Shown: positions 58,922 through 64,000 of the stretch, in pieces
Position numbering within the stretch: position 1 is the stretch's first letter
Layout: every line of letters starts with the position of its first letter
From: Chelativorans petroleitrophicus
GTDB lineage: Bacteria; Pseudomonadota; Alphaproteobacteria; Rhizobiales; Rhizobiaceae
Assembly: GCF_025398195.1 (NCBI RefSeq)
Contig: NZ_JAODNV010000010.1
Span: 62,001-126,000, forward strand
Reading direction: 5' to 3'
Length of the DNA: 64,000 nt
Made by a program: the position numbers and the translations under genes
Notes under the pieces: model-generated
Databases searched by the model: none
What the model was told of the DNA's origin: nothing
What the model saw: only the letters and a program-made list of their open reading frames with translations

Positions 58922-59144
58922 TCTTATTTTATAGCAGCTACCTTAGACCAACTTTTATCTCAATGTCACGAAAAATTTTGGCCCAGGGCGGGCCGTTATC
59001 CGGCCGATTTGAGAAGCGTTTTGCGCGCCCGGCCTGCCGCCTGGCGCGCTTGGGTTTGCAACCTGCCACGAAATGGCTAAGAAGCCTGTCGATACAGGCT
59101 GGCGGCGTGATTCCGCCTCTTTCCACTGCATAACGGGTAGCTTC

Positions 59145-60473
59145 ATGCGACTGTCGCGTTACTTCCTGCCCATCCTGAAGGAAAACCCCCGGGAGGCCGA
59201 GATCGTCTCGCACCGGCTCATGCTGCGGGCGGGCATGATCCGCCAGCAGGCTGCCGGCAGCTTTTCCTGGCTGCCGCTCGGCAAGCGGGTGCTCGACAAG
59301 GTCTGCCAGATCATCCGCGAGGAGCAGGACCGCGCCGGCGCGCTGGAGATCCTGATGCCGACCATCCAGTCGGCGGACTTGTGGATCGAGAGCGGGCGCT
59401 ACAACGATTACGGCAAAGAAATGCTGCGCATCCGCGACCGGCAGGATCGCCCGATGCTCTATGGCCCCACCAATGAGGAAATGGTGACGGACATTTTCCG
59501 CGCCTATGTGAAGTCCTACAAGGATCTGCCGCTCAACCTCTATCACATCCAGTGGAAGTTCCGCGACGAGGTGAGGCCGCGCTTCGGGGTGATGCGGTCG
59601 CGCGAATTTCTGATGAAGGACGCCTATTCCTTCGATCTGGACTATGAAGGCGCGAAGGCGGCTTACAACCGTATGTTCGTTGCCTACCTGAGGACCTTCT
59701 CCCGCCTAGGGCTCAAGGCAATTCCCATGCGGGCGGATACCGGGCCGATCGGCGGCGATTTGAGCCATGAGTTCATCATTCTGGCCTCGACGGGTGAAAG
59801 CGCCGTCTTCTGCCACAAGGACTTTCTGGATCTGCCCGTGCCTTCGGCCGACGTGGATTTTTCCAACGACGAGGAGATTGCCGGCATTGTCGAGCAGTGG
59901 ACCAAGCCTTACGCGGCCACCGACGAAATGCACGACGAGGCCGCCTGGGCACAGGTGCCGGAAGACAAGCGCCTTGCCGCGCGCGGCATCGAAGTCGGCC
60001 ACATTTTCCACTTCGGCACCAAATATTCCAAGCCCATGAAGGCCACGGTGATGGGACCGGACGGGAAGGAACACTTCGTTTCGATGGGCTCCTACGGCAT
60101 CGGCCCGACGCGCCTGGCGGCGGCGATCATCGAGGCGAGCCACGACGAAGCCGGCATCATCTGGCCCGAGGCGGTCACCCCATTCGAGATCGCGCTGATC
60201 AATATGAAGGCGGGTGACGCGGAGTGCGACCGCGTCTGCGAGCAGATCTATGCCGCGCTTTCGGCTTCTGGTCGCGAGGTGCTTTATGATGACACCGATC
60301 AGCGGCCCGGCGCCAAATTCGCCACCGCCGACCTCATCGGCCTGCCGTGGCAGGTGATTGTCGGTCCGCGCGGTGTGGCTGCGGGCGAGGTGGAGGTGAA
60401 GAGCCGGGCCACTGGCGAAAGAGAGACCCTTCCCATAGAGGCGGTCGCAAACCGGTTCAGCGTGCGCCGATGA
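59145..60473 (+). CDS. proS: Prolyl-tRNA synthetase, short bacterial type
   Basis: ProS charges tRNA-Pro. The 442-residue protein is the short alphaproteobacterial form without the editing insertion: [40 protein letters not shown], class II motif 2 in [20 protein letters not shown], motif 3 in [16 protein letters not shown] and a C-terminal anticodon-binding domain. The ATG at 59145 matches the family start. Its stop overlaps the lolC start (ATGA). Confidence 0.94.
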
Positions 60474-61753
60474 CCGAAACCACGGGGGGCAACGGAGGAG
60501 CTCCGCCCTTCTCCCATTTCGAGCGTCTTGTCGCTTGGCGCTATCTGCGCTCGCGGCGCAAGGAGGCCGTGGTCTCTGTCATCGCCAGCATCTCCTTTCT
60601 CGGCATCATGCTTGGCGTGGCGACCCTCATCATCGTCATGGCGGTGATGAACGGGTTCCGCGCCGAGCTGCTCACGCGCATTCTGGGCGTCAACGGGCAT
60701 ATCGTCGTGCAGCCCGTGGATATGCCCATGAACGATTACGAGGATGTCAGCACCCGCGTCGCCAGGATACCGGGCGTGCGGCTCGCAGCCCCGCTTGTGG
60801 AGGGGCAGGTGCTTGCCTCCGGTCGCGAGGGTAGGGGGACCGGCGCGCTCATCCGCGGCGTCCGTACCGACGATCTTGCGGAAATGAGGCTCGTTGCGCA
60901 GAACATCCGCCAAGGCTCGCTCGTAGGCTTCGCCACGGGCGGAGGTGTGGCCGTGGGCGCGCGCATGGCGCAGGCGCTGGGACTTGCGCTTGGCGACCAG
61001 GTAACCCTTTTCTCGCCGGAAGGCGACGTCACGCCCTTCGGCACTACTCCGCGCGTGAAGGCCTATCCCGTAAGCGCGATCTTCGAGATCGGCATGTCGG
61101 AATACGACTCCTCGATCATCTACATGCCGCTTGAGGAGGCGCAGCTTTTCCTGAATGCCGAAGGGCTGGCGCAATATATCGAGGTCTTTGTGGACGACCC
61201 CGACAATGTCGACAGCTTCCGTCCGCTGGTCGAAGAGGCGGCTCAGCGCCCCGTCATCATCACCGATTGGCGCCAGCGCAACCAGACCTTCTTTTCCGCG
61301 CTCGAGGTCGAGCGGAACGTCATGTTCATGATCCTCACCATGATCGTGCTGGTGGCCGCGCTCAACATCATCTCCGGCATGATCATGCTGGTGAAGGACA
61401 AGGGGCACGATATCGCCATTCTCCGCACCATGGGGGCCACTAGCGGCGCCATTATGCGGATCTTCATGATGGCCGGCGCGGCGATCGGCGTGGCCGGCAC
61501 GCTCGCCGGCTTCGTTCTGGGGACGGTCCTGTGCCTCAATGTGGAATCCATCCGCCAGTTCTTCTCCTGGCTTTCGGGTACGACCATCTTCAATCCGGAA
61601 GTCTATTTCCTGAGCCAGCTTCCGGCCGATATGGAGACGGGCGAGACCGTTTCGGTGGTGCTGATGGCGCTGCTGCTCTCCTTCCTCGCAACCCTCTTTC
61701 CTGCCTGGCGCGCCTCGCGCCTCGATCCCGTGGAAGCGTTGAGATACGAATAG
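60470..61753 (+). CDS. lolC: Lipoprotein-releasing ABC transporter permease LolC/E
   Basis: This inner-membrane protein extracts lipoproteins for transport to the outer membrane. The 427-residue protein has four membrane segments (about 40-62, 285-310, 330-350, 390-410) and a large periplasmic domain between the first two. [14 protein letters not shown] and [20 protein letters not shown] are family blocks. The start overlaps proS by 4 bases, and lolD begins right after the stop. Confidence 0.92.
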
Positions 61754-62440
61754 ATGGCCGAAAACGTTCTGGAACTGAGGTCGATCGACCGACGCTTCGT
61801 CCAGGGGACGAAGACGCTGACCATTCTCGAACAGGCCGATTTCGCGCTCCGGCCCGGCGAGATGGTGGCGCTCGTTGCGCCGTCGGGTACCGGAAAGTCG
61901 ACGCTTCTGCACATTGCCGGTCTGCTCGAATATCCCGATGGAGGCGACGTGGTCGTCAACGGCCAGCCCTGCGCGGCGCTGTCCGACGACCGGCGCACGG
62001 CGATCCGCCGCAGCGAGATCGGCTTCGTCTATCAGTTCCATCACCTGCTGCCGGAATTCACCGCACTCGAAAATGTGATGATGCCGCAGCTCATCGCCGG
62101 TCTTGATGCGCGCGAGGCGAAGGAGCGGGCGGCACAGCTTCTGAACTACATGAAGCTTGGTGAGCGGATGGACCACCGCCCGAACGAGCTTTCCGGCGGC
62201 GAGCAGCAGCGTGTGGCGATCGCCCGGGCGGTGGCGAATGCGCCGCTCGTGCTTCTGGCCGACGAGCCGACAGGCAATCTCGATCCCGCGACCGCGGCCT
62301 ATGTCTTCGATGCGCTGGAGGCGCTGGTGCGCCATTCCGGGCTTGCCGCACTCATCGCCACCCACAATGAGGAGCTGGCTGCGCGCATGGACAGGCGCGT
62401 CACCCTCTCGCAGGGCAAGGTGGTGGAACTTCCGGCTTGA
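61754..62440 (+). CDS. lolD: Lipoprotein-releasing ABC transporter ATPase LolD
   Basis: LolD powers LolC/E. The 228-residue protein has Walker A in APSGTGKST (about 42-50), the signature [16 protein letters not shown] and Walker B in [33 protein letters not shown] is the family Q-loop. It ends the proS-lolC-lolD operon. Confidence 0.94.
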
Positions 62441-62470
62441 GCGGAGGGCGGATAGGGCGGCACGGTATCG

Positions 62471-62821
62471 TCATGTGTGCTCGAGGATGTTTATGAGCTT
62501 GCCGAACGGATCACGCACATAGAAACGGCGTACGCCCCAGGGCTCGTCCGCCGGCCCGTACTCGATCGCGATCCCCGCATTCCGCACGCGCTCAAGCGCT
62601 TCCTCAAGATCGTCCACTTCAATGGAAAGGTCGGGCACAGGCGTGCCGGAGCCGCCCTCGGCCGCGAAGCTGACCTGCACGGCCGCTCTCTCCCGCGCGC
62701 CATAGGTGGCGATCCAGCCGTGGTCCATCAGCAATTCGAGACCCAGAACCTCGCCATAGAAGGAGCGCGCGGCCGCCAGCTCGCGCGTCTCCACATTGGC
62801 CACGATACGCTTCACTTGCAT
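62471..62821 (-). CDS. VOC-family (glyoxalase/bleomycin-resistance-like) protein
   Basis: A 116-residue vicinal-oxygen-chelate-fold protein: ARSFYGEVLGLELLMDHGWI at the start of the first half and WGVRRFYVRDPFGKLINILE at the end. Expected metal ligands are partly visible (DHGW, the closing Glu). The substrate is unknown. GGAG precedes the ATG. It converges on lolD and is divergent from the small SOS gene. Confidence 0.8.
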   Translation of the reverse strand: MQVKRIVANVETRELAAARSFYGEVLGLELLMDHGWIATYGARERAAVQVSFAAEGGSGTPVPDLSIEVDDLEEALERVRNAGIAIEYGPADEPWGVRRFYVRDPFGKLINILEHT

Positions 62822-62930
62822 AACTCACTCCTGACCACGCAGCCCGCCGGGCGCCAAATCAGACGGCATGCCTCAGGCCGCCGTCCTCCTCAAACGAACG
62901 TTCCCACCCGCTGGGGCGGTTGCAGTCCTG

Positions 62931-62959
62931 TTGACAGGAACATTTTTAGAACATATAAG
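62931..62959 (+). promoter_or_regulatory. Near-consensus promoter with embedded LexA (SOS) box
   Basis: TTGACA (62931-62936) and TATAAG (62954-62959) are 17 bases apart. Between them lies GAAC-N7-GAAC (62938-62952), exactly the direct-repeat SOS box of rhizobial and other alphaproteobacterial LexA; a third, degenerate unit (AAAC) follows at the same 11-base period. LexA bound here would block the promoter until DNA damage. Confidence 0.75.
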
Positions 62960-63001
62960 AAACATATCAAGATCAATATGACTTTTCCACAGGAGGACCC
63001 C

Positions 63002-63088
63002 ATGTCCGGTCTCGTTCAGGATGTCTTGTCGCTGGTGGCCGTCAGCTCCTTCCTCGTCGTCGCGGCGACGTGGATCGGCGCTCTCTGA
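63002..63088 (+). CDS. 28-residue membrane protein under SOS control (SidA-like in arrangement)
   Basis: A 29-codon frame starting ATG-TCC-GGT with a consensus AGGAGG 5 bases upstream, behind the LexA-box promoter at 62931. The product has a short polar start (MSGLVQD) and one hydrophobic helix from about residue 8 to the end, with Trp at 24. Caulobacter SidA is a 29-residue inner-membrane division inhibitor made in the SOS response; length, topology and control match, but no sequence homology is claimed. The quality of promoter and ribosome site argues that the frame is real. Too short for ordinary gene finders. Confidence 0.7.
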   Translation: MSGLVQDVLSLVAVSSFLVVAATWIGAL

Positions 63089-63467
63089 GCGGCGTGCGCC
63101 TCCGGGCACCACAAGGAGCGGGTTTGCTAACGAACGGGCAGGGCTTTTGCGGGGGTTAGGGCGCCGGCCTCTCCCAAAATTCCGCTCGGATGGAGACTGT
63201 TGTTTTGAGCGAGCCTCAGCGGGGGAGGCTCCAGCAAGATGAGGCATGGAAGGATGGGCTGACAGGCAAACAGGCGGCCGGCCGTAAGCTGTTATCGCTC
63301 CTCGATTGGTGCGGGCGCTGCCGGCGCCCTATCAGGTGCCTCTTGGCAGGCGGGCGCATGTCGTTCCGTCGCGATTGAAATGAGCACGGCGACCAGGGTG
63401 CCCGCCGCACGGCCGGAGCAGGGCGGAAAGATCGCGCCTTCTGCGTCGTCGCGGAGAGATCGCGCCG
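63089..63467. other. Intergenic region, nothing recognised
   Basis: Between the small SOS gene and the alanine dehydrogenase stop I see no supported gene, RNA or repeat. Short frames here lack ribosome sites and family signals. Confidence 0.5.
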
Positions 63468-64000
63468 TCAGGCGGCGAGGGCGGCCGTGGGTTCGGTGAC
63501 CTCGCAGCCAAGCGATTCAGCCACCGCCCGGTTGGTGACCCTGCCCTTATGGACGTTCAGCCCGTTGCGTAGATGCGGATCGTCCAGCAGCGCCTGCAGC
63601 CCCTTGTCCGCAAGCTGCAGGCCGTGGTGCAGAGTGGCGTTGTTGAGCGCGTGGGTGGAGGTGACGGGAAGGGCGCCCGGCATGTTTGCCACGCAGTAAT
63701 GTATGATGCCGTCCACCTCGAAGATCGGGTTGGAGTGGGTGGTGGGACGGGAGGTTTCGAAGCAGCCGCCCTGATCAATCGCCACATCGACGAGCACCGC
63801 TCCCTTCTTCATGCCGGCCAGCATTTCGCGGGTGACGAGCTTGGGGGCCGCCGCGCCAGGAATGAGAACGACGCCGATGATGAGATCCGCCCGAAAGCAC
63901 TCCTCCTCCACCGCCTCGGCCGTCGCGTAGCGGGTACGCGCCCGGCCGGCGAAGATGTCGTCGAGCTGGCGCAGGCGGGGGATCGAACGGTCGAGCACCG
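63468..64000 (-). CDS. ald: Alanine dehydrogenase, C-terminal part (5' end outside window)
   Basis: The last ~177 residues of L-alanine dehydrogenase, which interconverts alanine and pyruvate with NAD. Visible are the end of the NAD domain ([40 protein letters not shown]) and the C-terminal block ([40 protein letters not shown]). The N-terminal half lies beyond base 64000. Confidence 0.94.

What the first reader, a model, noticed from the sequence alone, without database searches (positions are those of the whole stretch)
62931..63088. A 28-residue membrane protein gene with a LexA box inside its promoter: a possible rhizobial SOS division inhibitor
Seen: TTGACA-17-TATAAG, with GAAC-N7-GAAC between the hexamers, a third degenerate unit, AGGAGG 5 bases before an ATG, and a 28-residue product with one hydrophobic helix. 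Known: GAAC-N7-GAAC (GTTC-N7-GTTC) is the alphaproteobacterial LexA site, and Caulobacter SidA is a 29-residue SOS-induced membrane inhibitor of division. Inference: this is a functional counterpart that stops division after DNA damage. Such frames are missed by annotation.
Basis: partly seen in the sequence, partly recalled or inferred. Interest (0 to 1): 0.88.

Follow-up and report, generated by a model that had tools for sequence, protein, structure and literature searches.

The report
SidA-like SOS division inhibitor in rhizobia
A tiny unannotated membrane-protein gene with a built-in DNA-damage switch appears to be a distant relative of the protein that stops Caulobacter from dividing while its DNA is damaged, and similar genes occur in other Alphaproteobacteria and in a few phages integrated in their genomes.

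Summary
The 28-codon frame is under purifying selection in the genus, and 21 of 23 chromosomal Rhizobiaceae homologues kept have an exact GAAC-N7-GAAC upstream. Related peptides lie directly upstream of dnaE, often behind lolD, in other families and orders. In Caulobacteraceae the peptide there is SidA: NCBIfam NF033228 matches 19 of 19 aligned, and dnaE follows. Rhizobial and SidA profiles align without gaps (hhalign 74-86%). In 61 genomes of the order (one region misread), 31 have a box upstream of dnaE against 1 for a reversed-letter control; 29 of the 31 precede a small hydrophobic frame. In the window's genome dnaE lies elsewhere, so the peptide is not a dnaE leader. The curated SidA model does not recognise the rhizobial branch. 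Extras: an operator of 3-4 half-sites in 11-bp phase and phage-borne copies in four genomes. LexA binding, induction and division arrest are inferred.

The parts
62931..62959 (+). sigma70-type promoter, TTGACA-17-TATAAG
   Evidence: sequence; TTGAC invariant in the 15 genus promoters aligned
62938..62952 (+). LexA operator GAAC-N7-GAAC between the two hexamers
   Evidence: exact in 21 of 23 chromosomal-type Rhizobiaceae loci kept; the same motif precedes lexA, two imuA-like genes, ssb and a DNA-repair radical-SAM gene in this genome
62960..62974 (+). third and fourth operator half-units AAAC (62960) and GATC (62971), continuing the 11-bp phase
   Evidence: third unit at most 1 mismatch from GAAC in 14 of 16 genus loci and 13 of 15 other loci of the family; fourth unit in 12 of 16 and 12 of 15 (loci are related, not independent)
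62991..62996 (+). Shine-Dalgarno AGGAGG
63002..63088 (+). 28-aa SidA-like single-helix membrane protein gene (stop included)
   Evidence: highest 19-residue Kyte-Doolittle mean 2.14
61754..62440 (+). lolD-like ABC ATPase, conserved upstream neighbour (after a prolyl-tRNA-synthetase-like frame 59073-60473 and a lolC-like frame 60347-61753)
   Evidence: (LolD models are the best matches, below their curated cut-offs)

Best explanation
This is the rhizobial branch of the SidA family. LexA, bound to a string of GAAC half-sites lying between and just past the -35 and -10 hexamers, keeps the promoter shut. When DNA damage activates RecA and LexA is cleaved, a short transcript is made and translated into a 28-aa single-helix inner-membrane peptide. 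By homology with SidA, the peptide binds the late divisome (FtsW, with FtsN/FtsI) and holds septal wall synthesis off until repair. Shown here: the gene, its coding constraint, the conserved operator, the lolD-x-dnaE place in relatives and the profile match to SidA. Inferred: LexA binding, induction, membrane insertion, the FtsW-type target and division arrest.
For: Purifying selection on the frame. Box upstream in relatives. Order survey of 61 dnaE upstream regions (L319 misread at a contig end): exact GAAC-N7-GAAC within 600 bp in 31, GTTC orientation in 3, reversed-letter control in 1; 29 of the 31 followed within 5-95 nt by a 22-50 aa hydrophobic frame, against 249 of 1220 random positions. 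Class survey of 110 regions (L182, L244 misread, L187 short): box in 15; 14 pass the same frame test (169 of 2200 random positions) and the fifteenth, L257, has a 29-aa peptide. SidA at the homologous place: NF033228 matches 19 of 19 at E<=0.1, L301 at 59.7 bits against a cut-off of 35; dnaE downstream in 29 of 30 loci, and in the thirtieth on rereading; named records L296-L301, five Caulobacter and one Caulobacteraceae, all six with dnaE; sidA is CCNA_02004 (PMC10769358 passage) and dnaE is CC1926 (PMC1839093 passage). Profiles: A7-A8 74.4%, E 2.7e-5; A4-A8 86%, E 5.1e-6; the order-wide HMM A4 scores 19 of 19 SidA sequences at 11-24 bits and 1 of 3800 shuffles reaches its own real score; [DE]7, [AS]10, [LMF]11 and F17 in 20 of 20 and 19 of 19. 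LexA and other SOS genes with the same box exist in this genome.
Against: No experiment. The curated SidA model gives no hit to the window peptide, 0 of 61 relatives reach its cut-off, and only 2 of 12 members of the class-wide set A5 match it. The profile match covers 21 columns of a hydrophobic peptide. The narrower rhizobial profile separates SidA less well from shuffles (109 of 3800), and the reverse search is weaker still (310 of 4000; 595 of 5800). The rhizobial branch lacks the basic residues near the N-terminus of SidA, and its conserved W is at 24 where SidA has W19. Many genomes show no exact box upstream of dnaE: 30 of 61 in the order and 95 of 110 in the class (misread rows included).
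Confidence: 0.8

Rival explanations
1. A TisB/DinQ-like SOS peptide: LexA-controlled and membrane-inserted, but acting by depolarising the membrane rather than by contacting the divisome.
For: Same size class, SOS promoter and single helix; DinQ is an SOS-regulated single-helix peptide that depolarises the membrane, and TisB a small toxic SOS peptide (PMC3567139 passages).
Against: Homology and shared locus with SidA; the window peptide carries one charged residue, D7, and no K or R. No antisense RNA or processing site was sought.
Confidence: 0.1
2. A leader peptide or upstream ORF that tunes dnaE expression after damage.
For: In many genomes it lies directly upstream of dnaE; PMC10117765 suggests that some translated S. 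meliloti sORFs in 5'UTRs, sORF25 before dnaE1 being noted, could act as upstream ORFs (passages, 33, 34).
Against: In the window's genome dnaE is on another contig (G000:C44) while promoter, operator and peptide are kept; the genes that follow in the genus differ (ggt, lipB, ald). Selection is on amino acids.
Confidence: 0.04
3. The SOS-controlled product is a small RNA and the frame is incidental.
For: Very short transcript unit; no terminator-like site was found after the gene (101) and the downstream RNA folds no better than shuffles, so the transcript's end is unknown.
Against: dN below dS and a non-synonymous deficit; peptide motif kept across orders while sequences diverge.
Confidence: 0.02

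Closest known systems
SidA of Caulobacter (NCBIfam NF033228, cell division inhibitor SidA)
   Same: Size (28 against 29 aa), hydrophobic single helix, GAAC-N7-GAAC in the promoter, dnaE-upstream place in relatives, ungapped profile match with [DE]7, L11, F17
   Different: Not detected by the curated model; conserved W24 instead of W19; no basic residues near the N-terminus; 3-4 phased half-sites; in the window's genome not next to dnaE
DidA of Caulobacter (71 aa)
   Same: Small single-helix division inhibitor acting on FtsW/FtsI/FtsN (PMC4211646 passages)
   Different: SOS-independent, longer, binds FtsN; no relation sought here
YneA / SosA (Gram-positive SOS division inhibitors)
   Same: SOS-induced division inhibitors (titles and abstract starts in the listing)
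   Different: Different bacteria; no sequence relation tested
TisB / DinQ of E. coli
   Same: SOS-regulated small inner-membrane peptides (PMC3567139 passages)
   Different: Type I toxins with antisense RNAs; DinQ acts on the membrane potential

Membership tests
SidA (NF033228 equivalog) | Scores above the curated cut-off of 35 bits | tested here: not met
   No hit for the window peptide (E<=1, E<=10); 0 of 61 relatives above cut-off, none reported in G000 at E<=10
SidA-like family in the wider sense | Profile homology to SidA | tested here: met
   hhalign 74.4% (E 2.7e-5) and 86% (E 5.1e-6); HMM A4 on 19 of 19 SidA, 1 of 3800 shuffles; weaker with narrower profiles
SidA-like family in the wider sense | About 28-38 aa with one hydrophobic helix | tested here: met
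   a few relatives are longer by start choice (L019 43, L118 44, L157 47)
SidA-like family in the wider sense | LexA operator in its own promoter | tested here: met
   sequence level only:
SidA-like family in the wider sense | Located between lolD and dnaE | tested here: inconclusive
   lolD side kept in the window; dnaE is on another contig; both neighbours present in relatives such as L041, L051, L099, L116 and in named Caulobacter L297 and L300
SidA | LexA- and RecA-dependent induction by DNA damage | not testable with these tools
   needs RNA-seq or a reporter
SidA | Blocks division through FtsW/FtsN/FtsI | not testable with these tools
   needs expression, suppressors and two-hybrid; known for SidA from PMC4211646 (passages)

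The most novel reading that the evidence does not exclude
SidA is the best-known branch of an Alphaproteobacteria-wide family of SOS division inhibitors seated at the replicative polymerase locus, and temperate phages have captured members and put them in their early operons, where they would stop host division under phage rather than LexA control, as lambda Kil does (recalled).
Probability: 0.5. Interest if true: 0.78.

Novelty: new variant of a known kind. Interest (0 to 1): 0.64.

Why it matters
How Alphaproteobacteria stop division after DNA damage is, to my knowledge (recalled), known mainly from Caulobacter. This gives a defined, testable candidate in rhizobia and in other families, in many of them placed beside the replicative polymerase gene, and missed by the curated SidA model and by the Pfam and NCBIfam scans made here. 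It also shows that a 28-residue gene can be followed across orders by combining operator, synteny and profile.

Tried and rejected
dnaE leader peptide: rejected because the window's genome keeps peptide and operator without dnaE next door. Incidental frame or sRNA only: disfavoured by codon statistics. S. meliloti sORF25 (before dnaE1, PMC10117765): kept as a lead only; whether it is the orthologue was not tested, and in one genome of genus g48 of this family dnaE and the peptide lie on different contigs (G105). Plasmid collection: no match. Phage collection: one weak record (E 7), otherwise none. Viral contigs: one DNA pattern, 0 hits. Judged chance matches and dropped: L024, L025, L030, L098, L104. 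Misread by my fixed offset or a wrong strand sign: L182, L244 (class survey), L319 (order survey), L294 (family survey); found on recheck. L294 does carry the peptide, without an exact box; the others were left in the denominators. Alignment A6 had one row one base out of frame; A8 replaces it. One search read minus-strand loci unturned; one search replaces it. One search had my own error (one letter too many) and found nothing; the corrected scan is. Script 35 stopped on a short locus (the rest done, where L107's peptide was not read), and script 83 failed on option use. The curated SidA model also gives sub-threshold matches in unrelated control genomes, so its low-score hits were not used. 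Literature: searches, judged from their listings, showed no paper on a SidA homologue in rhizobia; open-licence papers only, and Modell et al. 2011 is not held, so SidA is known here through later papers. Papers PMC4117421, PMC13384398 and PMC6120978 were looked at in passages and not used.

Full report
Observation. The described elements are all present at the stated coordinates. The box is one of four exact GTTC-N7-GTTC matches in the window against a shuffle mean of 1.53, so it is not remarkable by count; the value lies in comparison. tblastn of the 28-aa peptide in 61 genomes gave matches at E<=10 in 25, including all 16 genomes of the genus (own included). Thirty loci were fetched; L024, L025 and L030 were judged chance and dropped, and four further weak rows had no locus. 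Of the 27 kept, 23 are chromosomal-type (lolD or dnaE within the 3-kb locus in 21 of 23; L011 has lolD farther off in L038, L016 only lipB) and 4 are phage-borne. An exact GAAC-N7-GAAC lies upstream in 21 of the 23 (L006 and L011 have 7 of 8 letters) and in none of the 4. Codon analysis against 15 relatives shows purifying selection. In the window a VOC-family gene (62471-62821, minus strand) lies before it and an alanine-dehydrogenase frame (63468-63998, minus strand, cut by the window end) after it, so I see no other plus-strand gene of known family that this promoter would serve nearby.

Family. A profile of these peptides searched in 397 genomes of the order gave 29 new loci among the 30 shown, L088-L116. 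Sixteen of them lie outside the window's family. Thirteen of the 16 have an exact GAAC-N7-GAAC upstream within 160 bp (not L098, L102, L104), and 14 of the 16 have dnaE directly downstream (not L098, L104); eight also have lolD upstream. L098 and L104 I judge chance. A class-wide profile search (385 genomes) added L117, L118, L119, L123 and L133, each directly upstream of dnaE; four of these five have an exact box (not L133).

Surveys that start from dnaE. To avoid choosing by the peptide, I took dnaE itself. In the class, 144 genomes were searched, 138 had a dnaE match, and the upstream regions of 110 were taken; on recheck L182 and L244 were misread and L187 is only 189 bp long, and they stay in the denominator. 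An exact GAAC box within 500 bp occurs in 15 regions, in GTTC orientation in 8, reversed-letter controls in 1 and 3. Fourteen of the 15 are followed within 5-95 nt by a 22-50 aa hydrophobic frame, against 169 of 2200 random positions; the fifteenth, L257, carries a 29-aa peptide. In the order, 61 genomes were searched and 61 regions taken, L319 misread at a contig end: GAAC box within 600 bp in 31, GTTC in 3, control in 1, and 29 of the 31 pass the frame test against 249 of 1220 random positions. Against: 30 of 61 and 95 of 110 have no exact box there, and in the window's own genome dnaE (G000:C44) has neither box nor peptide upstream (L317).

SidA. A 29-aa peptide upstream of dnaE in L123 led to its family (80 genomes; 67 with a match at E<=1). 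Of the 30 loci fetched, 29 have dnaE on the same strand just downstream; the thirtieth, L294, is cut at the contig end and on rereading has the peptide before dnaE too. Twenty-four of the 30 have an exact box upstream of the peptide. A scan of named genomes with a promoter pattern hit six records, five titled Caulobacter and one Caulobacteraceae, each with the peptide and dnaE, and in L300 the order proS-lolC-lolD-peptide-dnaE. NCBIfam's curated SidA model matches 19 of 19 aligned peptides of this group at E<=0.1; L301 scores 59.7 bits against a cut-off of 35, the other scores were not shown. Papers agree: sidA is CCNA_02004 (PMC10769358, one passage) and dnaE is CC1926 (PMC1839093, table passage); that sidA is CC1927, next to it, is recalled. 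SidA is a 29-aa SOS-induced inner-membrane inhibitor that interacts with FtsW and FtsN (PMC4211646, passages).

Is the rhizobial peptide a SidA? The curated model does not reach it (0 of 61 relatives over the cut-off), and only 2 of 12 members of a class-wide set match it. Profile comparison does: rhizobial against Caulobacteraceae 74.4% (E 2.7e-5), order-wide against Caulobacteraceae 86% (E 5.1e-6), ungapped over the first 21 residues. An order-wide HMM scores all 19 SidA at 11-24 bits, with 1 of 3800 shuffles reaching its own real score; a family-only HMM is weaker (109 of 3800), and the reverse direction weaker still (310 of 4000 and 595 of 5800). [DE]7, [AS]10, [LMF]11 and F17 are kept in 20 of 20 rhizobial and 19 of 19 Caulobacteraceae sequences, while the conserved W is at 24 in one and 19 in the other. 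With the shared locus and promoter I read this as orthology with divergence, not as membership of the curated equivalog.

Operator. The own genome holds 118 exact boxes (control, letters reversed: 71). From the 100 listed I fetched 14 with mostly A/T-rich spacers, other than the window's. Five stand before SOS-type genes: lexA and ssb and a radical-SAM repair gene, each over a curated cut-off, and two imuA-like frames below theirs; for the other nine I could not name an SOS gene (7 proteins scanned). At lexA, one imuA-like gene, the radical-SAM gene and ssb the box has only its two units, whereas the peptide's promoter continues with a third and fourth unit in 11-bp phase: third within one letter of GAAC in 14 of 16 genus and 13 of 15 other loci, fourth in 12 of 16 and 12 of 15 (related loci, not independent). 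In Caulobacter about 97% of SOS promoters carry a single LexA box (PMC12700426, passage). A longer operator would suit a gene whose leak is costly; this is inference.

Phage-borne copies. Four genomes (G009, G013, G023, G031) hold, besides a chromosomal-type copy, a second copy (L027, L017, L026, L029) without the box, set close between neighbouring frames and near phage genes: S24-type repressor, exonuclease VIII and RecT (L046); exonuclease VIII and RecT (L052); integrase, RusA, Sak4-like and single-strand-binding genes (L045); integrase, repressor-like and methyltransferase genes (L044). No match was found in the phage collection beyond one weak hit, and one pattern scan of viral contigs was empty.

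Mechanism and limits. The most likely working is LexA repression, RecA-dependent release, synthesis of a one-helix peptide and arrest of septal synthesis through the FtsW complex. Everything after the operator is inferred from SidA. Rivals (membrane-depolarising peptide, dnaE leader, small RNA) are weighed in their own sections.

Noticed in passing
L044, L045, L046, L052 (peptides in L026, L017, L027, L029): Second copies of the peptide gene lie among phage genes (repressors, integrases, exonuclease VIII/RecT, Sak4, RusA), without a LexA box, tightly packed with neighbouring frames: possible phage-encoded division inhibitors.
   Followed up: partly
window 62938-62974 and promoters of the relatives: The operator continues as four half-units at exact 11-bp spacing, in most of the genus as GAAC-N7-GAAC-N7-GATC-N7-GATC, beyond the two-unit boxes at lexA, an imuA-like gene, ssb and the radical-SAM gene of the same genome.
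   Followed up: partly
L340 (G000:C44:145300-147400): A DNA-repair radical-SAM gene (TIGR03916, rSAM_link_UDG) has a GAAC-N7-GAAC box just upstream and looks like an SOS gene in this genome.
   Followed up: no
L342 (G000:C54:19200-21300): A cytosine DNA methyltransferase gene has a GAAC-N7-GAAC box just upstream.
   Followed up: no
PMC10117765, S. meliloti: A translated sORF (sORF25) is reported in the 5'UTR of dnaE1; it may or may not belong to this family.
   Followed up: no
window 62441-64000 and downstream of the gene in the genus: Where dnaE sits in other families this genus holds varying genes (ggt, lipB, ald), so dnaE seems to have moved away or a segment was inserted.
   Followed up: partly
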